Origin: Microbispora sp. ZYX-F-249
GTDB taxonomy: Bacteria > Actinomycetota > Actinomycetes > Streptosporangiales > Streptosporangiaceae
Assembly: GCF_039649665.1 (NCBI RefSeq)
Contig: NZ_JBDJAW010000002.1
Span: 62,001-126,000 of the forward strand
DNA: 64,000 bases
Reading direction: 5' to 3'
The notes beneath the pieces are model-generated. The model was given only the letters and a program-made list of their open reading frames with translations, had not been told where the DNA came from and ran no database searches. Within the stretch, counting starts at the first letter, position 1; each line of letters opens with the position of its first letter. Position numbers and translations under genes: made by a program. Shown one piece after another: positions 3,580 through 47,611 of this stretch.

Positions 3580-3635
3580 CCCCGCCGGGGCCGCCGCCCG
3601 GCATCCGACGGCCGGTGGTCCTCCCGGCGACGCGC

Positions 3636-3673
3636 AGGCACGCCGCCCGGTGAACGCACCGGACGGCGTGCCT
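3636..3673. terminator. Bidirectional hairpin terminator
   Basis: Arms AGGCACGCCG (3636-3645) and CGGCGTGCCT (3664-3673) enclose a second stem CCGGTG/CACCGG with an AACG tetraloop; one C/A mismatch separates the stems. It lies between the converging aldehyde dehydrogenase and ThuA genes and has no U-tract, as is usual in high-GC actinomycetes. Confidence 0.75.
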
Positions 3674-3709
3674 CGGCTCCCGAAAGCCGGGGTGGAAGCC
3701 CGCGCAGCC

Positions 3710-4501
3710 TCAGTCGCCGTCGGGGTCGCAGGGGAAGTTCGTCACCCCGGCGGTCATCCGGATTCCGCCCAGCAGGTGCTTGAGGAACAGCGGGTCGCTG
3801 TAGGACTCCTTGGTGTGGCCCATGCCCGTGTACCAGGAACGCCCGCCGTCGTAGTTGTGGCACCAGGCGATGGGGTGGTCGCCCATGGCGCCGGAGCCGG
3901 GGTTGTAGGACTTCTCGTCGAGCTCGGCGAGCACGCGCACCCCGGCGTCGCGCGGGTTGGTGCGGTAGTTGTACCACTCGTCCCAGCGGTTCCAGCGGTT
4001 CGGCAGCCCGCGGTTGGACGCCGCGCCCTGGCCCACCATCTTCACCGTGGCGTTCTGCTGCGCCGGGTGGTTGCGGAAGTAGGCGCCGACGAGGCCGCCG
4101 TACCAGGCCCAGTTGTAGCCGGAGTCTCCGGCGGCGTGCACGCCGACGAAGCCACCGCCGTTGCGGATGTAGCGCTCGAACGCCGCCTTCTGCTCGGGCT
4201 GGCCGAGCGGGTCACCGGTCGTGGACATGAAGACGACGGTCTGATACTTGGCGAGGTTCGCGTCGGTGAACTGGGCCGCGTCCTCCGTCACGTCCACCGC
4301 GAAGCCGTTCTCCTGGCCGAGCTGCTGGATCGCCGCCTCACCGGCGGGAATCGAGTCGTGCCGGAAGGCGGTGGTCTTGCCGAAGACGAGCACGCGGAAC
4401 TCGGGGTCGTCCGCGGGGGCCGCGAGCGCGCTGGTGCCGGCGAAGGCCGGCGCGATGATCGCGGACAGTGCCGCCAGAGCGAGCAGTCGCTTACGTGACA
4501 T
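3710..4501 (-). CDS. Secreted ThuA-domain protein
   Basis: 263 residues. The ATG at 4501 is chosen over one 21 bases upstream because GGAGG stands 9 bases before it and a clean Sec signal peptide follows (MSRKRLLALAALSAI..., cleavage near ALA-AP at residue 25-28). The mature part is one ThuA (trehalose-utilisation, glutamine-amidotransferase-like) domain: RVLVFGKTTAFRHDSI, then GGGFVGVHAAGDSG and AWCHNYDGGRSWYTGMGHT. ThuA domains are found in sugar catabolism and in many secreted actinobacterial sugar-binding proteins; the exact reaction is not known for this type. Monocistronic, between two hairpin terminators. Confidence 0.85.
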   Translation of the reverse strand: MSRKRLLALAALSAIIAPAFAGTSALAAPADDPEFRVLVFGKTTAFRHDSIPAGEAAIQQLGQENGFAVDVTEDAAQFTDANLAKYQTVVFMSTTGDPLGQPEQKAAFERYIRNGGGFVGVHAAGDSGYNWAWYGGLVGAYFRNHPAQQNATVKMVGQGAASNRGLPNRWNRWDEWYNYRTNPRDAGVRVLAELDEKSYNPGSGAMGDHPIAWCHNYDGGRSWYTGMGHTKESYSDPLFLKHLLGGIRMTAGVTNFPCDPDGD

Positions 4502-4772
4502 GGTGACAGTCCTCCATCTCATGCGTCATGGAGGCCGGCCCACTGGGGGGTGGTGGGCCGGCGGTTCCGTGACGGAAGGCAGGGCCGCGCACCGCCGAAA
4601 CGGTCTTCACGGCCTCAAGTGGGCGCCAAATTACCCTCTTTCATCACCGTATGGAAGAAGTTAAGTACAAGTTTCAAGAACTTTCGTTTGCGGTAGGACA
4701 AAGTTGTGACCGCATCAGGGCTTTCGCCGGACGGGCTGCGGCGGCGCGCTTCACCGGCCCCCGGAACACGCC
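4502..4772 (-). promoter_or_regulatory. Leader/promoter region of the ThuA gene
   Basis: No gene is supported in these 271 bases. The part at 4625-4710 is clearly more AT-rich than its surroundings and holds a 5-5-5 inverted repeat AAGTT-TCAAG-AACTT at 4669-4683, a possible operator. On the minus strand TTGAAA with CATACG 18 bases later is a weak promoter candidate. The assignment is tentative. Confidence 0.3.
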
Positions 4773-4804
4773 GATCCCCGGCGGGCGGTGGCCCGCCGGG
4801 GATC
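4773..4804 (-). terminator. Hairpin terminator after the FtsH-like gene
   Basis: Perfect 14-bp stem (GATCCCCGGCGGGC at 4773-4786 and its complement at 4791-4804) with a 4-base loop, starting 12 bases after the stop codon of the FtsH-like gene. It should end the lipoprotein/FtsH-like operon. Confidence 0.8.
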
Positions 4805-4815
4805 GGATCGGTGAT

Positions 4816-7761
4816 CTACGCCTCCGGGCCTCGGCGGCCGTCGTAGCCGAGCAGCCGCATCGCCACCTCCGGGTCCATCGCCGCCGCGAGCAACTGCGCC
4901 CGGTCCGCCGCCCGGTCCCTGGCCTCCTCGGCGCGCCGCCGTCCCGCCTGATGGGAGCGGACCAGCAGGACCGCCACCGCGATGCCGCCGACGACCGCGA
5001 CCAGCGCGACGGCCAGCAGCACGGCCGTGCCGGCCGGCACCCCGCCGACCGCGGCCACCCCCGCCGCTCCCCGCGGCGGGGCGAGGAGCAGCGCCCCCAG
5101 CAGTACGAACAGCACCACCGCCACGACGACTCCGACGACCGCCCACAGCGCGCCGTGCGACCGGCGGTCCGGCGCGGCGGGCGGCGTGGCGAACAGCGCG
5201 CCCGCGGGGAGGGGCGGCGGGGCGCCGTTCCACGGCACGAAGTCCGGCTGCGCCGGCGCCCCCGGCTGGACCGCCGGGGCGTGCCCGTTGCCGCCGGCCA
5301 CGCCGTTCGGCGGCGGGGCGACCAGCACCGGCGCGGCGCCGCCGGAGGACGCCGCGACGACCGACGCCTCGATCACACGCGTCCGCGGCAGCGGGAGCTC
5401 GACCGGGACCTCGCTGTGCGCCTTGTGGGCCGCCACCGCGGCCGTGTGGTACGCCTCGATCTCCTCGTAGAACTCGTCGGAGGTGTAGACGACGCCGTCG
5501 ATCAGCGGGCCCATCCTGCCCTCGATGACCGCGACCACGTCGTCGCCGTTGAGCGTCTTGTGCTGTTCCAGGGCGTGCGCGACCGACAGCACCTCGCGGC
5601 GGTTGTCCCGCAGCAGCTCGGCCGTCTTCTCCAGCAGCCGGCTGAGGTTGAACTCGATCCGCTCGGGGAGCATGTCGGGCACCATCTCGTCGCGCCGGCC
5701 CCCCGAAGCGCCGGAGCCGCCGGGCTGCGGCTGCGCCGCCTTGCCCTCGCGCAGGCCGAGCTCCTGCAGCGCGGGCAGCGAGGCGACTCCGATGCCCATG
5801 CCCCAGTGGGCCTCCATCATGCCGGTGATAGCGGTGGCGCTCTGCAGGTCGCCGGAGACGCCGGAGGAGTTGTCCTCGCCGAAGAACATCCGCTCCCCCG
5901 CGAGCGAGGCGAGCGACACCATGATGTCGGCCTCGTACTCCGACTTCCACCTGGTGAACTGGTCCTCCGGCTTGATGCTGCTGACCATGCCGAGGTAGTC
6001 GGCGCCCTTCTCGATCGTCGCCAGGTCGATTTCCAGGTGGTGGCGGGTGCGGTAGGCGGCGACGGCGTGGCACGCCTCGTGCACCGCGACCGCGTGCCGT
6101 TCGCGCTCGATGTACTCGACGTCCTCGGGCGGCCCGAGCTGCTTGAGCCGCTTGGCCCGCATGACGTCCGACCAGGTGATCGTCTCCCGGCCGTCCCGGA
6201 TCGCGGTGATCAGCGACTCGTTGACCAGGTCCTTGATCGTCGCACCGGTGGCGTACGGCGTGATCGTGGCGAGCTTGTCGATCTGCTCGTCGTCGAGCTC
6301 GTGGCTGACCTTGTCGAAGTAGCCCTTGTAGGTGCGGATCCGGCCCGCCTTCGAGGGGTAGCCGACCTTGTAGATGCGGTCGATTCGGCCCGGCCGCAGC
6401 AGCGCCTCGTCCAGGGCCTCGGGCAGGTTGGTGGCCATCATGATGAGGATGCGGTACTTCGGCGGCGGCTTGGGCCGCATGCCGAGCAGCCTGCGCACGT
6501 GACGGTTGACGAAGCCGCGCGGCTTCTTCAGACCGCTGATCTCGGTGAGCAGCGCCTCCAGCGTGCCCATCCCGCCACCGCCGCCCATGCCCCCGCCGTA
6601 CATCAGGCGGTTGACGAAGGCGCCGGTGCGCGGCATCCTCGCGGGCTCGGCCGCGGAGGCCGGGCCCGCGGCCTGACGGCCGAGCACGGTGCGCGTGTGC
6701 GGGTCGAGGTAGGCGAAGCCGTTGCACCCCGAGTTCTCGAACGGCGCCGGCACGGACCGGCCCCAGCCGCCCGGGCCGCCCTGGGCGAGCGCGCCGCGGT
6801 TGCCGAGCGAGTCGGCCTCGTCGAAGAAGACGATGACGCCGCCGTACCGCAGGGCCAGTTTGCGCAGCTTGCGGAACAGCGACTTCACCTTGAGGACGCC
6901 GACGCCGAAGAACATGTTGATGAAGGCGCCCGGGTCGACGAACACGTACGGCTTGCCGGTGGAGCCCGCGACCGCCTCGGCCATCAGCGTCTTACCGGTG
7001 CCGGGCGGGCCCCACAGCAGGATCCCGCTGGGCACGTAGCCGCCCCTGGCCTCGATCTCGTCCGGTTTCTCCAGGAAGACGATGTTCTCCTTGACCCGCT
7101 CGACGACGTGGTCCTGGCCCCAGACGTCCGAGAAGCGCGTTTTGATGTCGTCGGGGTAGTAGACGTCGACGCCGCCCCGCGACAGGAACCAGAAGATCGC
7201 CACGAACTGTCCCACGGCGACCACCATGATCAGCATGAGCTGCAGGACCATGGGGAGGAAGCCCCACACGGTGGCCGGGACGCTGAACAGCGCCTCGAGC
7301 GGCGAGACCTGCTGCACCTTGCCCAGCACCAGCGCGATGACCGCGATCCAGACGAACCACTTGATCGCCCGGGAGATGCGGTAGCGGTTCCAGTCGCTGA
7401 ACCTGCGGTGGGTCCAGCGGTTCCAGCCGCCGAAGACCTTCCGGGTCCAGAATCCGTGGTAGCCGGCCGACCGCTCGCTGATCAGGAAGTGGACCTGCCG
7501 GAGCACCTCGACGCCCGCCAGCCACAGGACCCAGGAGGCGCTCGCCACCGTGCGGACGGTCGCGTCGTACAACGAGATGATCCCGGGGAACGTCGCGATC
7601 TCGTTCCACACCAGCACGCCGAACGCGACGGCGAGCAGGATGAGGAACTTGATCCGGTCCCACATCGGGAGGCGTTTCCTGGTGAGGGGGTCGCGGTCCA
7701 CCGGACCCGACCCCGGTTCGCGAAGCCCCTCGTGGTGCTTCGGAGGGAGGGCCGTGCTCAT
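4816..7761 (-). CDS. FtsH-like membrane AAA+ metalloprotease with C-terminal membrane extension
   Basis: 981 residues; FtsH is usually 640-800. Hydrophobic segments lie at about 37-52, 72-86, 132-147 and 168-193. The AAA+ module has Walker A GPPGTGKT (251-258) and Walker B VIVFFDEAD (309-317), then a Gly/Pro-rich insert of about 100 residues (325-425) before the sensor and arginine-finger part (MMATNLPEAL, RPGRIDR). The peptidase has HEACH (561-565), matching HExxH with Cys where FtsH has Gly, and the third-ligand region SGDLQSATA (636-644). After a Pro/Ala-rich linker come two more hydrophobic segments (about 850-930), which FtsH lacks. The SD AAGGAG overlaps the stop of the upstream lipoprotein gene 13 bases away. 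Probably degrades membrane proteins; substrates unknown. Confidence 0.85.
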   Translation of the reverse strand: MSTALPPKHHEGLREPGSGPVDRDPLTRKRLPMWDRIKFLILLAVAFGVLVWNEIATFPGIISLYDATVRTVASASWVLWLAGVEVLRQVHFLISERSAGYHGFWTRKVFGGWNRWTHRRFSDWNRYRISRAIKWFVWIAVIALVLGKVQQVSPLEALFSVPATVWGFLPMVLQLMLIMVVAVGQFVAIFWFLSRGGVDVYYPDDIKTRFSDVWGQDHVVERVKENIVFLEKPDEIEARGGYVPSGILLWGPPGTGKTLMAEAVAGSTGKPYVFVDPGAFINMFFGVGVLKVKSLFRKLRKLALRYGGVIVFFDEADSLGNRGALAQGGPGGWGRSVPAPFENSGCNGFAYLDPHTRTVLGRQAAGPASAAEPARMPRTGAFVNRLMYGGGMGGGGGMGTLEALLTEISGLKKPRGFVNRHVRRLLGMRPKPPPKYRILIMMATNLPEALDEALLRPGRIDRIYKVGYPSKAGRIRTYKGYFDKVSHELDDEQIDKLATITPYATGATIKDLVNESLITAIRDGRETITWSDVMRAKRLKQLGPPEDVEYIERERHAVAVHEACHAVAAYRTRHHLEIDLATIEKGADYLGMVSSIKPEDQFTRWKSEYEADIMVSLASLAGERMFFGEDNSSGVSGDLQSATAITGMMEAHWGMGIGVASLPALQELGLREGKAAQPQPGGSGASGGRRDEMVPDMLPERIEFNLSRLLEKTAELLRDNRREVLSVAHALEQHKTLNGDDVVAVIEGRMGPLIDGVVYTSDEFYEEIEAYHTAAVAAHKAHSEVPVELPLPRTRVIEASVVAASSGGAAPVLVAPPPNGVAGGNGHAPAVQPGAPAQPDFVPWNGAPPPLPAGALFATPPAAPDRRSHGALWAVVGVVVAVVLFVLLGALLLAPPRGAAGVAAVGGVPAGTAVLLAVALVAVVGGIAVAVLLVRSHQAGRRRAEEARDRAADRAQLLAAAMDPEVAMRLLGYDGRRGPEA

Positions 7762-7774
7762 ATGAGGGGCTCCT

Positions 7775-8473
7775 TCACGGGTTGATGAGGCGCTTGACCT
7801 TGAAGGACTTGACGACGGTGCCGATCTCCGCGGCCCGCTGGCGGTAGCAGGCGGGCGAGCAGCGGATGAGAAGGGTGGACGCCGTCGTCCCGTCGGCCGA
7901 CAGGTAGGCGGTCCTGTCGAACGTCTCCACCGTGTTACCCACCCGGTAGTTGTAAACGGTGTGGACGCCGCGGACGCCGTCCGCGATGGGCAGCACCTCG
8001 TCGGCCAGCAGTTCGAACCCCGTCAGGCCGCTCGCCTCGAACGCCTGCTGCTGCTCCTCCGTCAGCGGCACCGGCATCGGAGGGGAGCCACGCAGCAGAT
8101 TGAGCGACGCCGCGTTCTGCTCGGCCTCGCTGAGCTTCTGCACCTTCGCGAACACGAAGGGTCTGTCGTCGGTGCCCGCGGAGCCCCGGACGAGATGAAT
8201 GAGGGACGGTTCGTCGTAGGCGTCGAACGCCGCCGTCCACACCGCCTGCTTCGCGAGCTGTTCGGTGGCGGAGTCCGTGTCGCCGAAGAGCACCTCGTCG
8301 AGCGTCTTCTGGTCGATCTGCCGCCATGACGCGGGGACCTTGAAGTAGGTGCCGCCCGAGTCGTCGCGGACGTACGTGTATTCGGGGCCGGCACAGCCGG
8401 ACAGCAAGGAGGCGGCCAGCGCCGCCCCCACGACCATGCCCACCGCCCCGGCCCTTACCCGCGGTTTTTCCAC
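7775..8473 (-). CDS. Lipoprotein of unknown function
   Basis: The GTG at 8473 is preferred: GGAGG lies 10 bases upstream and it gives a normal lipoprotein signal (basic start, AVGMVVGAALAASLLSGC lipobox). A longer frame from 8527 would put 18 polar residues in front. 232 residues; the mature protein (YTYVRDDSGGTYFKVPASW...) has no domain I recognise, though its fold resembles small LpqN/PsbP-like lipoproteins that begin with a substrate-free 'F.VPasW' strand. It is the first gene of an operon with the FtsH-like protease, so it may act on or regulate that protease at the outer face of the membrane; this is inference. Confidence 0.75.
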   Translation of the reverse strand: MEKPRVRAGAVGMVVGAALAASLLSGCAGPEYTYVRDDSGGTYFKVPASWRQIDQKTLDEVLFGDTDSATEQLAKQAVWTAAFDAYDEPSLIHLVRGSAGTDDRPFVFAKVQKLSEAEQNAASLNLLRGSPPMPVPLTEEQQQAFEASGLTGFELLADEVLPIADGVRGVHTVYNYRVGNTVETFDRTAYLSADGTTASTLLIRCSPACYRQRAAEIGTVVKSFKVKRLINP

Positions 8474-11355: not shown

Positions 11356-12521
11356 AACCGGACGACCGGATTCGTGTCATGGAGATAATCGCCCGGATGA
11401 ACGTGAGCGGTCCCGCCACCCAGGTCACCGGGCTGTGCGAGCGGCTCAGCGCGGTGGAGTTCGACCACCGTCTGTACACCGGATACGTCGACGGCGGCGA
11501 AGGCGACCACCTGCAGCTTCGCGACGCGACGATCCCGGTCCACCGGGTGCCGGGCCTCGGCCGCGCGATCAAGCCGGCCGACGACTACCGGGCTCTGTTC
11601 CGGCTGGCGAACGCGATGCGCGAGTTCAGGCCGCACATCGTGCACACCAGGACCACCAAGGCGGGCGCGCTCGGCCGCCTCGCGGTGCGGCTGTCGGGTG
11701 TCGGGGCGGCACGGGTGCACAGCTACCACGGCCATCTCCTCGACGGGCAGCTGTCCCGTCCGCGGCGGGCCGTCTACGTCCGCATCGAGCGCCGGCTGGC
11801 CAGGATGACCGACCGCCTCGTCACGGTCGGCGCCCGGGTGCGCGACGACCTCCTCGCCGCCGGCATCGGCCGGCCCGAACAGTACGTCGTCATCCCGCCC
11901 GGCGCCGGTCTCGGCCCGCTTCCCGAGCGTGCCCGCGCCCGCGCCGCGCTGGGCGTCCCGCCCGACGCGCCGGTCGTGGCGTACGTCGGGCGGCTGAAGA
12001 AGGCCAAGCGGCCCGACCGGCTCGCGGAGGTGGCCCGGGCGGTCCTCGCCCGGCTGCCCGGCACCCGGTTCCTGGTCTGCGGCAGCGGCGAGCTGAAGGA
12101 GGAGGTGGAGCGGGCCGTCATGCCGATGTGGGACTCCTTCCGGCTGCTCGGCTGGCGCCGGGACGTCGAGACCGTGTACGCCGCCGCCGACGTGGTGCTG
12201 CTCACCTCCGACAGCGAGGGCACGCCGCTCGCGCTCGTGGAGGCCGGCATGGCGGGGCTGCCGGTGGTGGCCACCCGGGTCGGCAGCGTCCCCGAGGTCG
12301 TCGTGGACCGCCGCACCGGGTTCCTGACCGAACCCGACGCGGACGAGATGGCCGACCACGTCGTACGGCTGCTCGTGGATCCGGGCCTGGCGCGGCGGAT
12401 GGGCGAGTCGGCCCGCACGTGGACCGGGCGCGCCTTCTGCGTGGACCGGCTGGTGGCCGACACCGAGGCCCTCTACCGCGCGCTGCGCGGCGCGACGCGG
12501 TCGGAGGTGGGAAGTCTTTGA
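11352..12521 (+). CDS. GT4-family glycosyltransferase
   Basis: 389 residues with a GT-B fold. The N-terminal half starts VMEIIARMNVSGPATQVTG; the C-terminal Rossmann half has VVAYVGRLKKAKRPDRL, VCGSG and the donor-binding motif SEGTPLALVEAGMAGLPVV with the EX7E pair. Such enzymes transfer a sugar from a nucleotide donor, with retention, onto a lipid-linked or protein acceptor at the cytoplasmic face. The ATG has GGGAGGAG 6 bases before it. It overlaps the next gene by 4 bases (TTGA), so the two are translationally coupled and likely act together on one envelope glycan. Confidence 0.9.
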   Translation: MKPDDRIRVMEIIARMNVSGPATQVTGLCERLSAVEFDHRLYTGYVDGGEGDHLQLRDATIPVHRVPGLGRAIKPADDYRALFRLANAMREFRPHIVHTRTTKAGALGRLAVRLSGVGAARVHSYHGHLLDGQLSRPRRAVYVRIERRLARMTDRLVTVGARVRDDLLAAGIGRPEQYVVIPPGAGLGPLPERARARAALGVPPDAPVVAYVGRLKKAKRPDRLAEVARAVLARLPGTRFLVCGSGELKEEVERAVMPMWDSFRLLGWRRDVETVYAAADVVLLTSDSEGTPLALVEAGMAGLPVVATRVGSVPEVVVDRRTGFLTEPDADEMADHVVRLLVDPGLARRMGESARTWTGRAFCVDRLVADTEALYRALRGATRSEVGSL

Positions 12522-13660
12522 CGCCCGTTCCGGCACTGACCTCCGTTCCGGCACTGACCTCCGTTCCGGCACTGGCGCCCGTGCTCGCGGGAGCCGCCGC
12601 CTGCCTGCTCGCCGCCGTGGGGCTGCGCCCGGTCCGCCGTACGGTCCCCTACCTCGGCGGGGTGACGCTGGCGGCGGCCACGGCGGGCGCCGCGGTGGCG
12701 ATCCCCGGCCTGCCGGACCGGCGGGTGGGCGCGGTCCTGCTGGCCGCCGCGGCGGTGGCGCTGCTCGGCCTCATCGCGGACGTCGGCAGGCTGCCGCTCG
12801 CCACCCGGCTCATCGTGGAGTCGGTGGCGGCGGGCGGGGTCGTGCTGTGCGGCGTGCAGGTGACGCTGACCGGCGACTGGCTCGACGGGCCGGTCAGCGT
12901 CATGTGGATCGTCGCGATGACCAACGCGTACGGGCTGCTCGACCGGCTCGGCGGCGCGCTGGCCGCGGTCGCCGCCGTCACCGGCGCGTTCCTCGCCGGG
13001 ACGGCGCTCGTGCTGGGCGACCCGTTCCTCGCGGTGCTCGCCGCCGCCCTGGCCGGGGCGTTCCTCGGCGCCCTCCCGTACGGCAGGGCGCGGGGCAGGG
13101 TCCGGCTGGGTCCGTCCGCCTCGTTGTTCGCCGGGTTCGTCCTGACCTGCACGGCCGCCGCGCTGACGGCCGGACGGGGCACCGCCGTGATCGCGGCCGG
13201 GCTGCTGCTGCCGGCGCTGGCGGCCGTCGTGGGGGCCGGAGCGTACGCCGCCCGCCGGCCGCGGCGGTCCGGGCAGGCGCGGAAGGCCGCGCCCGCCCTG
13301 TGCTGCGTCTCGGCCGGCACCGGGACGGCCGGGCTCGCGGTCGCGCTCGGCTGGGTGCCCGCCGGAGTCGCGGCCGCGGTCACCGCCGCGACCGCCGCCG
13401 CTTTCCTCTCCCATGCGTGCCTGCGTCGCGGCCGCTTCCCCGTGGTCCACCCGTTCCACGCGCGCCGCCACCGGCGCGACGGCCTCCCTGCGCGCCTCCG
13501 GCGCGACGAGGTCACGCGCGGGAGGCCGGTGGGGGCCTCCGTCCGGGCCTCGTCCGGTGAAGCGTCCGGTGAAGCGTCCGGTGGTGGACGACAGCGCGGG
13601 CGCGTGCCGCCCCCGCGCTCCGCCGGAAACCCCCCGCCGCCCTACGTACGGCGGGGGTGA
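12518..13660 (+). CDS. MraY/WecA-like membrane protein lacking catalytic aspartates
   Basis: 380 residues from a TTG at 12518, chosen because TTGA overlaps the GT4 stop and GGAGG stands 10 bases upstream. About ten hydrophobic segments follow the polyprenyl-phosphate N-acetylhexosamine-1-phosphate transferase pattern: YLGGVTLAAA, LLGLIADVG, WIVAMTNAYGLLDRLGGAL and LPYGRARGRVRLGPSASLF. In active enzymes these read DD, N..N..DG.DG and GD.GS; here the second Asp, the second Asn, the DG.DG Asp and the GD Asp are missing. The C-terminus (about 315-380) is a basic, Ser/Gly/Pro-rich tail. The fold is probably kept for lipid or partner binding without the transferase reaction. Confidence 0.75.
   Translation: MTPVPALTSVPALTSVPALAPVLAGAAACLLAAVGLRPVRRTVPYLGGVTLAAATAGAAVAIPGLPDRRVGAVLLAAAAVALLGLIADVGRLPLATRLIVESVAAGGVVLCGVQVTLTGDWLDGPVSVMWIVAMTNAYGLLDRLGGALAAVAAVTGAFLAGTALVLGDPFLAVLAAALAGAFLGALPYGRARGRVRLGPSASLFAGFVLTCTAAALTAGRGTAVIAAGLLLPALAAVVGAGAYAARRPRRSGQARKAAPALCCVSAGTGTAGLAVALGWVPAGVAAAVTAATAAAFLSHACLRRGRFPVVHPFHARRHRRDGLPARLRRDEVTRGRPVGASVRASSGEASGEASGGGRQRGRVPPPRSAGNPPPPYVRRG
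13631..13657. terminator. Bidirectional hairpin inside the 3' end of the MraY-like gene
   Basis: A 9-bp G+C stem (CCCCCGCCG at 13631-13639, CGGCGGGGG at 13649-13657) ends one base before the stop codon and encodes the final PPPPYVRRG. It separates the MraY-like gene from the converging ABC ATPase gene. Confidence 0.6.
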
Positions 13661-13666
13661 CCGGGA

Positions 13667-14887
<1,221 letters not shown>

Positions 14888-15013: not shown

Positions 15014-16016
15014 GAACGGTCCAGCGCAGCGGCGGATAACCATCAAGGAAGTGGCGGAGGCGGCGGGGGTCGGGGTGGCCACCGTGTCCCGGGTCCTGTC
15101 GGGCGGCTCGGCGAGCGCCGAGACCCGCGAGAAGGTGCTCGCCGCGGCGGCCCGCCTCGACTACCGGCCGAGCGCGCTGGGCCGCAACCTGAGGCGCCAG
15201 CGCACCGGCGGCATCGGCCTGCTGGTCCCCGACATCACCGACAGCTTCTACGCGCGGCTGGCCGACGGCGTGCTGTCGTGCGCCCGCTCGTACGGCGAGC
15301 CGGTCACGGTGGGGGTCACCGGCGACGACCCCGAGCGGGAGGCCGAGCTGATCGGCACGCTCATCGAGCAGAGCATGGACCGGCTCATCGCGGTGCCGTC
15401 CGGCGACGGGGACATGTGGGCGCCCGCGCTGCGCGCGGGCCTGAACGTGGTGTTCGCCGACCGGCGGGTGCGGGGGGACGTGCCGAGTGTGGTGCCCGAC
15501 GACCGGGCGGGGGTGCTGACGGCGGTGGAGTACCTCGCCGGGCTGGGGCACCGGAAGATCGCCTACCTCGGCCGGCACGCGCAGTCGCAGCGGGTGGCCG
15601 CCTTCACCGCCGCGCTCGACTCGCTGGGGCTGCCCGCCGACCGGGACCTGGTCGTGCACGCCCGGTCGAGCCGCGACTCCGCCTACGCGGCCGCCGCGGG
15701 GCTGCTGCAGCACCGGCCGGACGTCACGGCGGTGATCGCGGGCGGCAACGTGCTCGGCGAGGCGGCCGTGCTGGCCGCCCGGGAGCTGGACGTGCGGATC
15801 CCCAGGGACGTGTCGCTCATCATGTTCGACGACGTGCCGTGGGCCGAGCTGTGCTCCCCGCCGCTGACGGTGATCGCGCAGCCGGCCCAGGACATCGGCT
15901 ACCGCGCCGCCGAGCTCGTGCTGCGGCAGGGCAGGCGGCCTCCGACCGTCACGCTGCCCACCCAGCTCGTCGTACGGGCGAGTTGCGGGCCCAGGGTCGC
16001 GAGCCCTAGGCGATGA
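15012..16016 (+). CDS. LacI-family transcriptional regulator
   Basis: 334 residues. The N-terminal DNA-binding part is ITIKEVAEAAGVGVATVSRV with the hinge helix YRPSALGRNLRR; a periplasmic-binding-protein-like effector domain follows (GGIGLLVPDITDSFYARL, GHRKIAYLGR, RDVSLIMFDDVPWAEL). It probably represses the divergent MsiK-type ATPase in response to a sugar, through the operators at 14922 and 14998. No SD precedes the ATG; the operator overlaps it. Its 3' end overlaps the converging glutathione peroxidase gene by 11 bases. Confidence 0.92.
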   Translation: MNGPAQRRITIKEVAEAAGVGVATVSRVLSGGSASAETREKVLAAAARLDYRPSALGRNLRRQRTGGIGLLVPDITDSFYARLADGVLSCARSYGEPVTVGVTGDDPEREAELIGTLIEQSMDRLIAVPSGDGDMWAPALRAGLNVVFADRRVRGDVPSVVPDDRAGVLTAVEYLAGLGHRKIAYLGRHAQSQRVAAFTAALDSLGLPADRDLVVHARSSRDSAYAAAAGLLQHRPDVTAVIAGGNVLGEAAVLAARELDVRIPRDVSLIMFDDVPWAELCSPPLTVIAQPAQDIGYRAAELVLRQGRRPPTVTLPTQLVVRASCGPRVASPRR

Positions 16017-41651: not shown

Positions 41652-42821
41652 TCAGCCGGCGCCGAGACCGCGAAGGCGGGTCACCGCCTCGTCGATGACC
41701 TCGTCCCGCTTGCAGAAGGCGAACCGCAGGAAGTGACGGCCCCGCGCGGGGTGGTCGTAGAAGACCTGGGTCGGGATGGCGACCACCCCGGCCAGCTCGG
41801 GCAGCCGCCGCGCCAGCTCCAGCCCGTCGTCGAACCCGAGCGGCCGTATGTCGGTCTGCACGAAGTAGGTGCCGGCGGGCCGGAGCACGTCGAAGCCGGC
41901 CTCGGTCAGGCCGGCCACGAGGCGGTCCCGCTTGGCCTGCAGGGCCGCCCGCTGCGCGGCCACCCAGTCCATCTCCTCCCGCAGGGCGTACGCGACCGCG
42001 ATCTGCCAGGGGGCGCTCGCGGTGTAGGTGAGGAACTGCTTGACCGTCTGCACGGCGTCGATGAGCGGCGCCGGGGCGCACACCCATCCGGTCTTCCAGC
42101 CCGTGACGCTGAAGGTCTTGCCCGCCGAGGAGATCATGACCGTGCGCTCGCGCATGCCGGGCAGCGTGGCGAGCGGCACGTGCTCCACACCGTCGAAGGC
42201 GAGGTGCTCGTAGACCTCGTCGGTGACCGCGATCAGGTCGTGCTCCCGGCACACGCGGGCCACGCACTCCAGCTCCTGCCGGGTGAACACGGTGCCGGTC
42301 GGGTTGTGCGGCGAGTTCACCAGGATCACCCGGGTGCGGGGCGTGACGGCGGCCTCCAGCTCGGCCGGGTCGAAGGTGAACCGCCCCGCGTCGACGCGCA
42401 GCGTCACCGCCCTGCGCACGGCTCCCGCGAGCGCGATGGCCGCGGCGTAGGAGTCGTAGTACGGCTCGAACACGATCACCTCGTCGCCCGGTTCGCAGAG
42501 CGCGAGGACCGCCGCGGCGATGGCCTCGGTGGCGCCGACGGTGACGAGGACCTCCCCGTCCGGGTCGTAGGCGAGGCCGTACCACTGCTTGCGGTGCTCG
42601 GCGACCGCCTGGCGCAGCTCGGGGAGGCCCGGCCCGGGCGGGTACTGGTTGAGACCCCTCCGCACGGCCTCGACCGCCCGCTCCAGCATGCGCTCCGGCC
42701 CGTCGGTGTCCGGGAAACCCTGGCCCAGGTTGATCGAGCCCGTCTCCACGGCCAGCTTCGTCATCGTGGCGAACACGGTTGTGCCGAACTCCCGCATCCG
42801 CCGCACCAGCGGCTCCTTCAC
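41652..42821 (-). CDS. dapC: PLP-dependent aminotransferase, DapC-like
   Basis: 389 residues from a GTG at 42821. The opening FGTTVFATMTKLAVETGSIN, the INLGQGFPDTDGP block, QYPPGPG, NSPHNPTGTV and the PLP-Lys region SSAGKTFSVTGWKTGW follow the actinobacterial N-succinyldiaminopimelate aminotransferase (Rv0858c-like) closely. It would make N-succinyl-diaminopimelate in lysine and wall-precursor synthesis; kynurenine-type activity is the alternative. No SD is present; TAGGGT (complement of 42829-42834) is 7 bases before the GTG. Confidence 0.85.
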   Translation of the reverse strand: MKEPLVRRMREFGTTVFATMTKLAVETGSINLGQGFPDTDGPERMLERAVEAVRRGLNQYPPGPGLPELRQAVAEHRKQWYGLAYDPDGEVLVTVGATEAIAAAVLALCEPGDEVIVFEPYYDSYAAAIALAGAVRRAVTLRVDAGRFTFDPAELEAAVTPRTRVILVNSPHNPTGTVFTRQELECVARVCREHDLIAVTDEVYEHLAFDGVEHVPLATLPGMRERTVMISSAGKTFSVTGWKTGWVCAPAPLIDAVQTVKQFLTYTASAPWQIAVAYALREEMDWVAAQRAALQAKRDRLVAGLTEAGFDVLRPAGTYFVQTDIRPLGFDDGLELARRLPELAGVVAIPTQVFYDHPARGRHFLRFAFCKRDEVIDEAVTRLRGLGAG

Positions 42822-42942
42822 GGCCCTCACCCTATCCGCGACCGCCGAGGGCCGACACGCGCCAACGACAACGGCGTGATGCCGGACGACCGGGAAACGG
42901 CTGTCCGAAAACGAGGACGAGCAGAGAAGGAATCCGGCATTC

Positions 42943-42971
42943 CTGTCGCCCCTGCGGCGCAAGCCTATAGT
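42943..42971 (+). promoter_or_regulatory. Promoter of the fxs remnant operon
   Basis: CTGTCG (42943-42948), a 17-base gap and TATAGT (42966-42971), followed by a GGGAGG SD and the start of the fxsC remnant. The -10 matches the consensus at five of six positions. Confidence 0.65.
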
Positions 42972-43000
42972 GAAGTGACCGGCGGAGCGCGGGAGGTGGG

Positions 43001-43391
43001 GTGGCTGGTACCTCGGGCGCTGAAGGCCGTCTCCCGTATCTCTTCATCAGTTACGCGCACACGCCTCGTACGCATCCCGAGGACGAGAACCCCAACCGGT
43101 TCGTGCAGCGCTACAAGGAGCTGCGCCGATAGCCGTCCTCGCCCACACGACGGCCACGGCTACGGCACCGCGGGACGCGTGGTTCTACGGGTCCTCTCCG
43201 TGCGGCTGCATTCCTCACCACCCCAAGAATCTCGGCCCGATGGCGCCACCCTGCGCGCACCGCTGCCGGCGAAGCCGGCGCAGCCGGTGCCTCGCAGCGG
43301 CCGCCCGCGACTGTGGCCGCTCACGCCGGAGGACCGGGCACCCGAAGATGCCGCGCCCGACGAACCGCCAGGACGGAAGGGGAGGCAATGA
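43001..43391 (+). pseudogene. fxsC: Collapsed fxsC (TIR-like protein of an FxSxx-COOH system)
   Basis: The GTG at 43001 with GGGAGG upstream opens a 43-codon frame, LPYLFISYAHTPRT...ENPNRFVQRYKELRR, the typical FxsC N-terminus with the TIR-like FISYA strand, then stops at 43130-43132. The following bases still encode recognisable C-terminal pieces in other frames (AWFYGSSP...HHPKNLGPMA near 43170-43245) and end in a frame whose TGA overlaps the fxsT start as ATGA, as an intact fxsC would. The central several hundred codons are deleted. What remains is a gene with both ends preserved and its middle lost, plus frameshifts. It may now serve only as a leader for fxsT. Confidence 0.75.
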
Positions 43392-46300
43392 GCGAGTTCC
43401 GGGACGGCCACATCGTCACCTTCTACTCCTACAAGGGAGGGACGGGCAGGACGATGGCGCTGGCCAACACGGCCTGGATCCTCGCCTCCAACGGTCACCG
43501 CGTGCTGGTCGTCGACTGGGATCTGGAGTCCCCCGGTCTGCACAAGTTCTTCCGGCCCTTCCTCGACGAGGAGATGATCGCCGGCACGGCCGGCGTGATC
43601 GATCTGATCGCGGGCTTCGCCTGGGCCTCGACGCGCCCCGGTTCCCGGCCCGCCGACTGGCACACCCGGTACGCGGACGTGGGGCGGCACGTCGTCCCGG
43701 TCGAGTGGCCCCACTTCCCCGACGGCGGCTCCCTCGGCTTCCTGCCCGCCGGACGGCAGGACCGCGACTACTCCTCCCTGGTGTCCACCTTCGACTGGGA
43801 CAACTTCTACGAGCGGCTGGGCGGCGGGCAGTTCCTCGACGCCCTGCGGATGGACATGCGGCGCGGCTACGACTACGTGCTCATCGACAGCCGCACCGGT
43901 CTGAGCGACGTCGCCGGCATCTGCACGGTCCACCTCCCCGACACCGTGGTCACCTGCTTCACGCTCAGCGACCAGAGCATCGAGGGGGCCGCGCGGGTCG
44001 CGTCGGAGATCGCCGAGCGGTTCTCCGACCGCCGCATCAGGATCCTGCCGGTCCCCATGCGCGTGGACGACACGGAGAAGGAGAAGCTCGACACGGGCCG
44101 GGCCTTCGCCCGGAGCCGGTTCGAGGAGTTCCCCAGCGGCATCGGCCAGGACCAGGCCGGCAGTTACTGGGGCGCCGTCGAGATCCCTTACAAGCCGTTC
44201 TACGCGTACGAGGAGACCCTGGCGGCCTTCGGCGACGCGCCCGGCTCGCCCGGCTCGCTGCTGGCCGCCTACGAGCGGCTCACGAACGTCATCACCGGGG
44301 GCCGCGTGCCGTCCCTTCCCCCGTTGGACGAGGACCTGCGGTTGAGTTACCGGGAGCTGTTCGTCCGGCGCCGCCCGTCGCTGTCGGAGGACGTCACCCT
44401 GAGTCACGTCCCCGAGGACCGGCTGTGGGCGGACTGGATCACCGCCGTGCTGACGCGGGCCGGCATGCGGGTCCGTACGCAGGGGGGCGAGCGCGAGGAG
44501 GACGCGAGCGGGCAGTCGCGGACGCCGGAGGCGGCGGGCCGCACGGTCGCGCTGCTGTCCCCCGCCTACCTGCGCTCGGGGCGGGCACGGGAGACATGGC
44601 GCGCCGCCGGGGGCCTCGCCGCGCCGTCGGCCGATCTGGTCGCCGTCCGGGTGTCGGACGTACGGCTCCCGCGGCCGTACGCCGACCCGCCCGCGCTGGA
44701 CCTGTTCCGGCTGGACGAGCAGCACGCGGCCGCCGCGCTGCTGCGCGCCCTCGGCCGCCCGTCGGGGGCCGAGGCCGCCGGGCGGGGAGGGACGCCGCGG
44801 TATCCCGGCATCCAGCCGGCCATCGTGAACCTGCCGACGAGGAACGCCGCCTTCACGGGCCGCGGCGAGATGCTGGAGCGGCTGCGCGACCGGTTCGCCG
44901 GCGGCAGCCCGGCCGTGGTGACCCAGGCGCAGGAGGGCCGCGCCCAGGCCCTGTTAGGACTCGGCGGCGTGGGCAAGACCCAGCTGGCCATCGAGTACGC
45001 CCACCGGTTCATGAGCGACTACGACGTCGTGTGGTGGGTGCCGGCGGAGCAGCCGGAACTGCTGAACGGAGCGATGGCCGATCTGGCCGAGCGGCTGGGC
45101 ATGAGGATCGGCGACAACCTGGCTGAGGCGGCGCTGGCGGCCAAGGACGCGTTGGGGCGAGGCGAGCCGTACGCCCGCTGGCTGCTCATCTTCGACGACG
45201 CCGACAGCGCGGAGGACGTGCAGACCTACCTGCCGGGGGGCACCGGGCACGTGCTGATCACGTCGCGGAGCCAGGCCTGGTCGCGGATCGCCATGCCGCT
45301 GGAGGTCGACGTCTTCACCCGGGAGGAGAGTCTGGAGCACCTGCGGCGCCGGGTGGCCGATCTCAGCGACGGGGACGCCGGTCGGGTGGCCGCCGCGCTG
45401 GGCGACCTGCCGCTCGCCATCGAGCAGGCCGGCGCGTGGCTGCAGGAGAGCGGCATGAGCGTGGACGAGTACGTCGGCACGCTGTCCGAGCAGCTTGAGC
45501 GGACGCTCGCACTCGGGGACTCCCCGACCTACCCGACCTCGGTCGCCGCCACCTGGAACGTGTCCATCGAGCGCCTGCGGGAGAAGTCACCCGCGGCGGT
45601 CCGGCTGCTCCAGCTGCTGGCCTTCTTCGCCGCGGAACCGGTGTCGCTGTCCATGTTGTACGGCGACGAGACCGTGCGCTGCCTGATCCCGTACGACGAC
45701 TCGCTGCGCGAGAAGATCATGATCGGGCGGCTGGTGCGCGAGCTGCACAGGTTCGCCCTCGCCAAGGTGGACCAGCGCAACAGCTCGGTGCAGGTGCACA
45801 GACTCGTGCAGGCCGTGCTGCGTGACCAGATGGACGACGACGAGCGCGAGCGCACCGTCCACGAGGTGCACCGCATCCTCCTGGGCGCCCGCCCGCGCGA
45901 GGGCGGCACCGACGACCCCGGCAACTGGCCGCGGTACGACGAGATCTGGCCGCACCTCGCCCCGTCCAGCGCGCAGGACTGCGACGAGGAGGAGACCCGG
46001 CAACTGCTGGTCGACCGCGTGCGGTACCTGTGGCGGCGCGGCGAGTTCGACCGGGCGCTCGATCTCGGCCGCCGCCTGGAGGAGCTGTGGATCAGGAAGC
46101 TCGGCGACTACGACCGGCAGACGCTCCACCTGCGGTTCCACCTGGGGAACGTGCTGCGTTCCCAGGGCAGGTACCGCGAGGCGTGCGATCTCAACCGGGC
46201 GATCCTCGAAGACCAGCGCCGGGTGCTGCCCGACCCGCATCCGCACACGCTACAGACGGCCGGCAGCCTCGCCGCCGATTTGCGCGCCCTGGGCGAGCCG

Positions 46301-47314
46301 ACCGAGTCGCTGCGGATGGAGCAGGAGACCTACGAGCGCACGAAGGAGCTGTTCTTCGACGACCACCCGCGCGTCCTCGCGGCGTCCCACAACCTGGCCG
46401 TCGCCCTGCGGCACGCCGGGGACTTCAACGCCGCCCGCCGGCTCGACCAGGAGACCGCGGACAAGCGTCGCGAGGTGCTCGGCCCCGCCCACCCCTCCAC
46501 GCTCCTATCCGAGGCGAACCTCGCTCTGGACATCCGCGAGGCCGGGGAGTACGCGAAGTCGGCCGACCTGCTGCGCGAGACGCTGAACAGCTACGCCGAG
46601 GTGGCCGGCCCCGAGCTCCCCGACAGGTTGAGCACCGCGCGCAGCCTCGCCGTGTCCCTGCGAGAGACCGGCGCGCTCGCGGAGGCGCGGCGGCTCACCG
46701 AGGCGACCTACGAGCGGTGTCTCCGGCGCTTCGGCCCCGACTCACCCGAGACCGTCGCGTGCAAACTGAGTCTCGCCTGCGATCTCGCCGCGGCGGGCGA
46801 CGCACGGCGGGCGCTCGACCTCGCCGCCGAGGTCCGGGCGAGCTACGAGAGCACGCTGGGCGCGGACAACCCGTACACGCTGATCGCGGCCGGCAACCTC
46901 ACGATCTACCTGCGGCACCTCGGTGAGTTCGCCGAGAGCCGGGCGCTGGGCACCCGTACCCTCCAGACGCTGCGGCGCAGGATCGGGTCCGATCACCCTT
47001 TCTCACTCGCCTGCGCCGTCAACCTGGCCAACGCGCTGGGAGACCTGCAGGACCACGCCGAAGCCGAGAGGCTGCAGCGGGACACCCTCGAACGGCTGCG
47101 CGCGGTTCTCGGCGCCTACCACCCCACGACACTGATCTGCGAGGCCGACCTGGCCGTGACCCTGCGCGACGTCGGGCGGACCGACGAGGCCCGGATGCTG
47201 CGCGAGCCCCTGCTCGTCCAGCTCCGCCGGATCCTCGGGGAGGCGCACCCGGTCATCGGCGCGGTGCTGGACTGGCGCCGCGTCGACCGCGAACTGGAAC
47301 CCCTCCCCTGGTGA
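43388..47314 (+). CDS. fxsT: FxsT: FxSxx-COOH system ATPase/TIR/NB-ARC/TPR protein
   Basis: 1308 residues. Domains in order: MinD/ParA-like P-loop at 1-260 (TFYSYKGGTGRTMALANTAW, deviant Walker A 15-22; VVDWDLESPG), a TIR-like domain at about 333-465 (DRLWADWITAVLTRAGMRV, TVALLSPAYLRSG), NB-ARC from about 480 (P-loop GLGGVGKT 524-531, WLLIFDDAD, LPLAIEQAGAWL), a winged-helix part, and about ten 42-residue TPRs from 870 to the end. It is a STAND-type signalling protein. In the family it accompanies FxsA (peptide), FxsB (radical SAM) and FxsC; here neither A nor B is seen. The start has GGAGG close upstream and overlaps the fxsC relic. Confidence 0.88.
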   Translation: MSEFRDGHIVTFYSYKGGTGRTMALANTAWILASNGHRVLVVDWDLESPGLHKFFRPFLDEEMIAGTAGVIDLIAGFAWASTRPGSRPADWHTRYADVGRHVVPVEWPHFPDGGSLGFLPAGRQDRDYSSLVSTFDWDNFYERLGGGQFLDALRMDMRRGYDYVLIDSRTGLSDVAGICTVHLPDTVVTCFTLSDQSIEGAARVASEIAERFSDRRIRILPVPMRVDDTEKEKLDTGRAFARSRFEEFPSGIGQDQAGSYWGAVEIPYKPFYAYEETLAAFGDAPGSPGSLLAAYERLTNVITGGRVPSLPPLDEDLRLSYRELFVRRRPSLSEDVTLSHVPEDRLWADWITAVLTRAGMRVRTQGGEREEDASGQSRTPEAAGRTVALLSPAYLRSGRARETWRAAGGLAAPSADLVAVRVSDVRLPRPYADPPALDLFRLDEQHAAAALLRALGRPSGAEAAGRGGTPRYPGIQPAIVNLPTRNAAFTGRGEMLERLRDRFAGGSPAVVTQAQEGRAQALLGLGGVGKTQLAIEYAHRFMSDYDVVWWVPAEQPELLNGAMADLAERLGMRIGDNLAEAALAAKDALGRGEPYARWLLIFDDADSAEDVQTYLPGGTGHVLITSRSQAWSRIAMPLEVDVFTREESLEHLRRRVADLSDGDAGRVAAALGDLPLAIEQAGAWLQESGMSVDEYVGTLSEQLERTLALGDSPTYPTSVAATWNVSIERLREKSPAAVRLLQLLAFFAAEPVSLSMLYGDETVRCLIPYDDSLREKIMIGRLVRELHRFALAKVDQRNSSVQVHRLVQAVLRDQMDDDERERTVHEVHRILLGARPREGGTDDPGNWPRYDEIWPHLAPSSAQDCDEEETRQLLVDRVRYLWRRGEFDRALDLGRRLEELWIRKLGDYDRQTLHLRFHLGNVLRSQGRYREACDLNRAILEDQRRVLPDPHPHTLQTAGSLAADLRALGEPTESLRMEQETYERTKELFFDDHPRVLAASHNLAVALRHAGDFNAARRLDQETADKRREVLGPAHPSTLLSEANLALDIREAGEYAKSADLLRETLNSYAEVAGPELPDRLSTARSLAVSLRETGALAEARRLTEATYERCLRRFGPDSPETVACKLSLACDLAAAGDARRALDLAAEVRASYESTLGADNPYTLIAAGNLTIYLRHLGEFAESRALGTRTLQTLRRRIGSDHPFSLACAVNLANALGDLQDHAEAERLQRDTLERLRAVLGAYHPTTLICEADLAVTLRDVGRTDEARMLREPLLVQLRRILGEAHPVIGAVLDWRRVDRELEPLPW

Positions 47315-47404
47315 CCGGGCCTGGCCGGGTGACCGGGCAGCCCCCGGCGATCAGGCCGCCCCGCAAGCTGTCGGGGCATCGGCTGCGCCTTCGCTTCCCG
47401 TGCG

Positions 47405-47611
47405 GAGCCCGAGCCGCGTCTCTCCTTCGAGGACCACGAGATCGAGCAGCTTGCGATGATGGAGCAGGAACGGTGGCTGCGGCACCTGGTCGCCGACCGG
47501 GACGCGCTGTCGGCGCGTGGGTTCGGCGGCACGGCCGACGTCGTCGTGCACGTCCGCGAGCGGGAGACGCGCGTGCTGGTGCTCTGGCCGCCCGGCTCGC
47601 GAAGAGGCTGA
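47405..47611 (+). pseudogene. Fragment with a RyR-like domain
   Basis: A 68-codon frame without a start codon: RLSFEDHEIEQLAMMEQERW then LRHLVADRDAL, a RyR-domain helix pair (the EIExLAxxxHexW pattern with Gln for His), then ADVVVHVRERETRVLVLW and a stop at 47609-47611. It resembles the C-terminal end of a larger RyR-domain protein that has lost its front. The 90 bases before it hold no gene. Its location directly after fxsT suggests more of the former cluster has decayed. Assignment rests on a short match. Confidence 0.45.

What the first reader, a model, noticed from the sequence alone, without database searches (positions are those of the whole stretch)
42943..47611. Orphan FxsT beside a collapsed fxsC: a decayed FxSxx-COOH system that kept its signalling ATPase
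An intact 1308-residue ParA/TIR/NB-ARC/TPR protein follows an fxsC relic that keeps its promoter, SD, first 43 codons and final ATGA overlap but has lost its centre. No FxSxx peptide or FxsB radical-SAM gene is visible. FxsT-type STAND proteins may act independently of the peptide, for example in defence or signalling.
Basis: partly seen in the sequence, partly recalled or inferred. Interest (0 to 1): 0.72.

Follow-up and report, generated by a model that had tools for sequence, protein, structure and literature searches.

The report
Orphaned FxsT in a decayed locus
A soil actinobacterium has lost the peptide, peptide-modifying enzyme and partner genes of one peptide-signalling locus but kept the large ATPase protein of that locus intact, while a second complete copy of the system sits elsewhere in its genome; this is a natural knock-out of a poorly understood system rather than a new kind of system.

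Summary
FxsT (43388-47314, 1308 aa) is intact (NF040586, 1039.7 bits) beside an fxsC relic. Related Microbispora loci give the older order: aminotransferase, fxsA, fxsB, AAC(3)-like, fxsC, fxsT, alpha/beta hydrolase (convergent), TrkA_N/RyR gene, small ORF, DUF418. The window and Microbispora sp. H13382 share the loss of fxsA/fxsB/AAC(3), two fxsC deletions (one frameshifting) and two deletions after fxsT that removed the hydrolase and left a chimeric RyR relic (47456-47611). Their other fxsC deletions differ, so fxsC was already dead in their ancestor while fxsT stayed open in both.

Orphan fxsT evolves below neutrality (omega 0.34), faster than orthologues beside fxsA/fxsB (0.12-0.20) but like the second-system fxsT in the same genome pair (0.37). 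It is a maintained or recently orphaned STAND-type protein; independent action is possible, not shown. The family is known; interest is moderate.

The parts
41652..42962 (-). class I/II aminotransferase, left boundary gene of the locus (ORF as listed; true start probably further in)
   Evidence: Pfam PF00155; same neighbour in L016, L018 and G010
42840..42904 (.). scar where fxsA, fxsB and an AAC(3)-like gene lie in M. triticiradicis
   Evidence: window 42839 aligns to L018 3095, window 42905 to L018 6627; the L018 genes between are identified
42962..43005 (+). conserved stretch with TATAGT and Shine-Dalgarno-like GGAGGTGG up to the GTG start: candidate promoter/start region formerly of fxsC
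   Evidence: 44 identical bases window versus H13382; TATAGT also in L018; no sigma-70 consensus match
43001..43132 (+). 5' relic of fxsC, 43 codons, ends at a TAG produced by the 517-bp deletion
   Evidence: NF040588 hit; alignment to L017 and L018
43128..43391 (+). 3' relics of fxsC, three pieces separated by 259-bp and 126-bp deletions, ending in the ATGA overlap
   Evidence: pieces 43128-43246, 43243-43283 and 43279 onward align to separated parts of intact fxsC
43388..47314 (+). fxsT: variant ParA/MinD-like domain (KGGTGRT), TIR-like domain, NB-ARC NTPase, TPR array
   Evidence: orthologues; motifs
47328..47361 (.). scar where a convergent alpha/beta hydrolase gene and most of the TrkA_N/RyR gene lie in M. 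triticiradicis
   Evidence: window 47327 aligns to L018 11934 and window 47362 to L018 14412; hydrolase at L018 11943-12926 minus; no hydrolase hit in the window
47362..47500 (+). remnant of the TrkA_N/RyR gene of intact loci
   Evidence: aligns to L018 14412-14549 inside ORF 12105-14711, Pfam TrkA_N and RyR; ryr hit 47375-47497
47456..47611 (+). 51-codon chimeric ORF made by deletion: RyR end fused to the end of a small ORF (161 aa in L018)
   Evidence: 47486-47601 aligns to L018 15076-15191; junction also in H13382
47311..48672 (+). DUF418 gene (ORF as listed; conserved part from about 47632), right boundary gene
   Evidence: Pfam PF04235; same neighbour in L016-L018 and G010

Best explanation
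The region is the remnant of a once complete FxSxx-COOH locus (fxsA-fxsB-AAC(3)-like-fxsC-fxsT, followed by a convergent alpha/beta hydrolase gene and a TrkA_N/RyR gene). In the common ancestor of this strain and Microbispora sp. H13382 the precursor peptide, the radical-SAM maturase, the AAC(3)-like gene and the hydrolase were deleted, fxsC was frameshifted and the RyR gene was reduced to fragments. fxsC then eroded further and separately in each line. fxsT alone stayed intact. By domain content FxsT is a STAND-type NTPase: the TPR array binds or senses, NB-ARC is the ATP-driven switch, and the TIR-like and variant ParA-like parts are output or adaptor. Without its own peptide it is most likely still made and folded; its signal would come either from the intact second fxs system in the same genome or from a non-peptide trigger. 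Shown here: the history, the intact motifs, the below-neutral evolution and the second system. Inferred: the switch mechanism, expression, and the source of the signal.
For: Intact orthologous loci in M. triticiradicis and M. hainanensis. Shared and private deletion junctions. Second complete system, 95-97% identical DNA in G004 = H13382. FxsT is open, breaks only 1 gap-free column that is otherwise invariant in a 40-sequence alignment, and keeps GLGGVGKT. N fraction of clean window-branch changes 0.618 against a neutral expectation of 0.742 +/- 0.033. No frameshift in 3.9 kb, although fxsC next door suffered five deletions across the two strains. In the 80-genome sample 18 of 22 full-length FxsT loci have fxsB within 10 kb, one is split by a contig end, one is unresolved, and two are orphans, the window and G004:C66.
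Against: Orphan fxsT is less constrained than orthologues in related loci that keep fxsA/fxsB (N:S 68:42 versus 75:138, p 6e-6; H13382 28:24, p 0.017), so it may be drifting towards decay. The fxsT gene tree is nearly a trifurcation and slightly groups H13382 with M. hainanensis/G010 (43 sites versus 29), against the flanking genes, so recombination is likely and the branch assignment of changes is imperfect. P(no stop) under neutrality with 140 changes is still 0.07. Expression and function are untested.
Confidence: 0.72

Rival explanations
1. fxsT is simply next in line for decay: the locus was made redundant by the second complete system and fxsT has not yet met a disabling mutation.
For: Elevated N:S on the window and H13382 branches against related loci that keep fxsA/fxsB (68:42 and 28:24 versus 75:138), on the window branch in ParA, TIR and NB-ARC. 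P(no stop) under neutrality 0.07. A related FxsT-like gene in M. hainanensis already carries 5 stops (G012:C187). In S. anandii and S. naganishii, which show no FxsB, the NB-ARC P-loop is degenerate.
Against: The N fraction lies below the spectrum-matched neutral range (0.618 versus 0.5th percentile 0.650). Second-system fxsT in the same two genomes has an equal dN/dS (0.37 versus 0.34, p 0.45-0.50). No frameshift despite many neighbouring deletions.
Confidence: 0.35
2. The orphan FxsT now works with the second system's peptide or FxsC supplied in trans (a retained receptor with a swapped ligand).
For: Of the five genomes with this orthologue, the two decayed ones (G000, G004) also hold the second system, and G009, G010 and G012 do not show it (one search scored only the 8 best candidates per genome, all of them).
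Against: The two decayed genomes share ancestry, so this is one event. The two FxsT proteins are only 47% identical. No binding evidence.
Confidence: 0.3
3. FxsT acts independently of any FxSxx peptide, for example as a defence-type STAND protein.
For: 3 of 35 named genomes with full-length FxsT have no FxsB at E<=1e-60: Microtetraspora glauca, S. anandii, S. naganishii. STAND/TIR/TPR architecture. Kaur et al. 2020 place such AP-ATPases among conflict-system effectors.
Against: 32 of 35 have an FxsB match, 31 over the cut-off. PADLOC hits cover only the ParA-like N-terminus. The TIR position of a catalytic Glu is not conserved.
Confidence: 0.25
4. Assembly or sequencing artefact across the relics.
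For: Draft assembly in 206 contigs.
Against: H13382, assembled separately, shares the fxsA/fxsB loss, two fxsC junctions and both downstream junctions; no N in the window.
Confidence: 0.02

Closest known systems
FxSxx-COOH system (NCBIfam TIGR04268 FxsA, TIGR04269 FxsB, NF040588/TIGR04276 FxsC, NF040586 FxsT)
   Same: FxsT is a full-length member over the curated cut-off; orthologous loci carry the full set
   Different: in this locus fxsA and fxsB are gone and fxsC is a relic
Standalone peptide-processing systems with an AP-ATPase bearing an inactive MinD/ParA-like domain (Kaur et al. 2020, PMC7159879; one section read in full, passages)
   Same: same AP-ATPase/TPR plus variant ParA architecture (KGGTGRT)
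   Different: the section and passages read do not describe an orphaned or decayed example
Bacterial STAND/NLR-like defence proteins (recalled as a class)
   Same: NB-ARC plus TPR plus TIR-like part
   Different: no PADLOC match beyond the ParA-like part; TIR catalytic position not conserved

Membership tests
FxsT (NF040586) | full-profile match above the curated cut-off | tested here: met
   1039.7 bits vs 300, profile 1-829 of 830
FxsT (NF040586) | encoded with fxsB in the same locus (usual, not absolute) | tested here: not met
   no FxsB on the contig; 18 of 22 full-length loci in the sample have it within 10 kb
FxSxx-COOH system (complete) | FxsA peptide with C-terminal FxSxx | tested here: not met
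   none in 42500-43500, forward strand, by pattern. Present in the second system (FNSAI; 22.5 bits, under the 28-bit cut-off), in L018 (FNSAIG, one residue longer) and G010 (FNSTS)
FxSxx-COOH system (complete) | FxsB radical SAM maturase | tested here: not met
   absent here, present on C15 (548.5 bits)
FxSxx-COOH system (complete) | intact FxsC | tested here: not met
   relic only
STAND NTPase | P-loop and Walker B of NB-ARC | tested here: met
   GLGGVGKT and LIFDDA present
TIR NADase | conserved catalytic Glu | tested here: inconclusive
   E in the window but D, other residues or a gap in other FxsT; which residue is catalytic is recalled, not tested
anti-phage defence system | phage resistance phenotype | not testable with these tools
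   none

The most novel reading that the evidence does not exclude
The orphan FxsT is a functional receptor that outlived its own ligand system and was rewired to the peptide (or FxsC) of an intact second fxs system: a STAND signalling protein that swapped ligands between two FxSxx systems.
Probability: 0.22. Interest if true: 0.65.

Novelty: new member of a known kind. Interest (0 to 1): 0.36.

Why it matters
I found no experimental account of what the FxSxx-COOH peptide does to FxsT in the searches made. Closely related Microbispora supply a natural series: complete locus, locus without fxsC (G010), and locus with fxsT alone. Deletion genetics on such strains could show directly whether FxsT needs FxsA/FxsB, FxsC, or neither. 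G010 also suggests that fxsC can be lost while fxsA, fxsB and fxsT stay, though that loss could be recent.

Tried and rejected
Consensus promoter and terminator scan: nothing found. The FxsA family search of the own genome found nothing although a real fxsA exists there, so that negative was discarded. First flank-gene dN/dS run: the aminotransferase rows were out of frame, and the nitrilase rows with L017 and G010 carried stops from misframed segments; these were dropped, and only the DUF418, amino-acid kinase and AtzD-like rows and the window/L016/L018 nitrilase rows were used. In one search the fxsC2 row was misframed and was redone. The neutral simulation takes its spectrum from 140 changes defined without G010, while the 68:42 count includes G010; the two are compared only as fractions. 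PADLOC gave only partial ParA-region hits. PDB sequence search gave kinesin-light-chain TPRs and a MinD-type hit, uninformative for function. Structure prediction was not used: the whole protein exceeds the 1200-aa limit. Literature: 'FxSxx-COOH' and 'FxSxx' gave 2 and 3 papers, of which PMC7159879 bears on this system; the other two are fungal studies seen only in the listing. 'FxsB + radical SAM' and 'FxsA + cyclophane' gave none. 'FxsT'/'FxsC' gave 48 papers, the 12 listed being unrelated uses, the other 36 unseen. A four-term search gave 4 papers, unrelated by title.

Full report
What is there. The window lies at G000:C2:62001-126000 of an 8.8-Mb draft genome. The closest named relatives of its FxsT are Microbispora. 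FxsT, 43388-47314, is open for 1308 codons and matches NF040586 along the whole profile at 1039.7 bits (cut-off 300). It also matches the KGGVGR-variant ATPase domain, TIR_2, NB-ARC and TPR families. The upstream ORF 43001-43132 matches the first 31 positions of FxsC_Nterm at 20.7 bits. Flanking genes are ordinary: AtzD-like amidohydrolase, amino-acid kinase, TMEM175-like channel, Fic/Doc and aminotransferase on the left; DUF418, carbon-nitrogen hydrolase and hydantoinase B on the right.

Ancestral locus. In M. triticiradicis (L018) the same two boundary genes enclose fxsA (ending FNSAIG), fxsB (558.7 bits against cut-off 370), an AAC(3)-like acetyltransferase gene, fxsC (195.8 and 154.9 bits, both over cut-off), fxsT, a convergent alpha/beta hydrolase gene (11943-12926, minus), an ORF with TrkA_N and RyR domains (listed as 12105-14711; its true start lies probably after the hydrolase), a 161-aa ORF and DUF418. 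In M. hainanensis fxsC and fxsT are intact at a contig start (L017). The fxsB contig of the same genome (G012:C179) aligns through the AAC(3) region to just before fxsC, so the locus is complete but split. G010, a single-contig genome, has fxsA (FNSTS), an NB-ARC/TPR gene, fxsB and fxsT but no FxsC hit anywhere at E<=0.001. A 71%-identical orthologue in another genus, G039, has fxsB and fxsC, an FxSxx ORF and hydrolase and RyR genes downstream.

How it decayed. Relative to L018 the window jumps from 3095 to 6627 (fxsA, fxsB and AAC(3) lost), then within fxsC by 517, 259 and 126 bp, then downstream of fxsT from 11934 to 14412 (hydrolase and most of the RyR gene) and from 14549 to about 15076-15091. 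It lacks the 517-bp deletion and has its own deletions of about 130 and 190 bp in fxsC. The scar before fxsC differs in detail, L016 keeping about 125 bp more. The shared 259-bp deletion is frameshifting, so fxsC was dead in the common ancestor and has eroded separately since.

A second complete system. On contig C15 of the same genome (L011, minus strand) there are fxsA ending FNSAI (22.5 bits, under the 28-bit cut-off but with the motif and position), fxsB (545.8 bits), two FxsC-type genes (148.7 and 136.5 bits, both over cut-off) and fxsT (876.4 bits), again followed by a convergent alpha/beta hydrolase. Its FxsT is 47% identical to the orphan. G004 holds the same segment at 95-97% DNA identity. 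G009, G010 and G012 show no second full-length FxsT (which scored the 8 best candidates per genome) and one FxsB each. The co-occurrence of scar and second system is one shared event, not two.

Is the orphan maintained? Pairwise dN/dS (Nei-Gojobori) of fxsT is 0.335 for window/H13382 and 0.12-0.20 among L017, L018 and G010. Counting clean branch-specific changes gives N:S 68:42 (window), 28:24 (H13382) and 75:138 (branches with fxsA/fxsB; this pool includes G010, which lacks fxsC), Fisher p 6e-6 and 0.017. On the window branch the excess lies in ParA, TIR and NB-ARC, not in TPR. A spectrum-matched neutral simulation expects an N fraction of 0.742 +/- 0.033; the window branch has 0.618, and P(no stop) is 0.07. 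The best control goes the other way: second-system fxsT in the same two genomes, with its own fxsA/B/C present, has dN/dS 0.373 (N:S 132:116), not different overall from the orphan (p 0.45-0.50); by domain only the TPR part differs, and there the orphan is the more constrained (47:70 versus 59:39, p 0.004). So orphaning cannot simply be blamed for the faster evolution. Flanking genes put window and H13382 as sisters (dS 0.07-0.14), while fxsT itself is close to a trifurcation with 43, 29 and 22 informative sites, so recombination within fxsT is likely.

Motifs. In an alignment of 40 FxsT the window breaks one otherwise invariant gap-free column, N604D in the Walker B region (DN to DD); H13382 breaks none, and 15 other sequences break 1-10. 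The window keeps KGGTGRT and GLGGVGKT. The TIR position where a catalytic Glu would lie (recalled from TIR enzymes) is E, D, another residue or a gap across the family, so the TIR-like part may not be an enzyme.

How common is orphaning? Of 22 full-length FxsT loci in 20 of the 80 genomes searched, 18 have fxsB within 10 kb, one is split by a contig end (G012), one is unresolved at contig ends (G002), and two are orphans: the window and G004:C66. Of the 35 named genomes with full-length FxsT (all 35 such loci of the 80 listed), 3 have no FxsB at E<=1e-60: Microtetraspora glauca, S. anandii and S. naganishii. M. glauca keeps fxsC, fxsT and only the C-terminal part of fxsB. The two Streptomyces have degenerate NB-ARC P-loops.

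A side result. The alpha/beta hydrolase of L018 has a homologue close after fxsT in 26 of these 35 loci, convergent in 25 and co-directional in one (L020), and also in C15, C23, G010 and G039; it is absent from the window and H13382 loci. It may be an unlisted part of the fxs neighbourhood. No literature search was made on it beyond those named.

Known or new. Kaur et al. 2020 (PMC7159879; [quoted passage not shown] The orphaned state, the stepwise decay and the natural series across Microbispora were not found in print. The thing itself is a decayed locus of a known kind.

Noticed in passing
L018:11943-12926 (minus); same place after fxsT in 26 of 35 named full-length fxsT loci: An alpha/beta hydrolase gene lies directly after fxsT, convergent in 25 of the 26, and also beside the second-system fxsT (C15, C23): a possible regular partner of fxs loci, lost in the window and H13382 loci.
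   Followed up: partly
L130:3561-6323 (minus), 6313-7317 (minus), genome G004: An FxsC-type domain (181 bits) sits in the C-terminal part of a 920-aa protein next to an AAA ATPase, reminiscent (recalled) of MoxR/vWA conflict systems.
   Followed up: partly
G012:C187:5537-8410 (M. hainanensis): A second FxsT-like gene (39% identity) carries 2 TGA, 1 TAG and 2 TAA, so FxsT relatives do become pseudogenes in this genus.
   Followed up: no
L125:3356-5662, 5780-7996, genome G010: fxsA, an NB-ARC/TPR gene, fxsB and fxsT with fxsC and AAC(3) missing: a variant locus without fxsC.
   Followed up: partly
L018:12105-14711: TrkA_N plus RyR domain gene after the hydrolase; present in L017, L018, G010 and in another genus (G039) but not near fxsT in the other loci apart from the relics in the window and L016.
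   Followed up: partly
L023:6064-6654: In Microtetraspora glauca the radical-SAM part of fxsB is gone but its HExxH-type C-terminal part stays as an open frame beside intact fxsC and fxsT.
   Followed up: partly
L012:6346-9789 (minus), own genome C19: A third TIR/NB-ARC/TPR protein (1147 aa) without the ParA-like part lies beside an MMPL-family gene.
   Followed up: no
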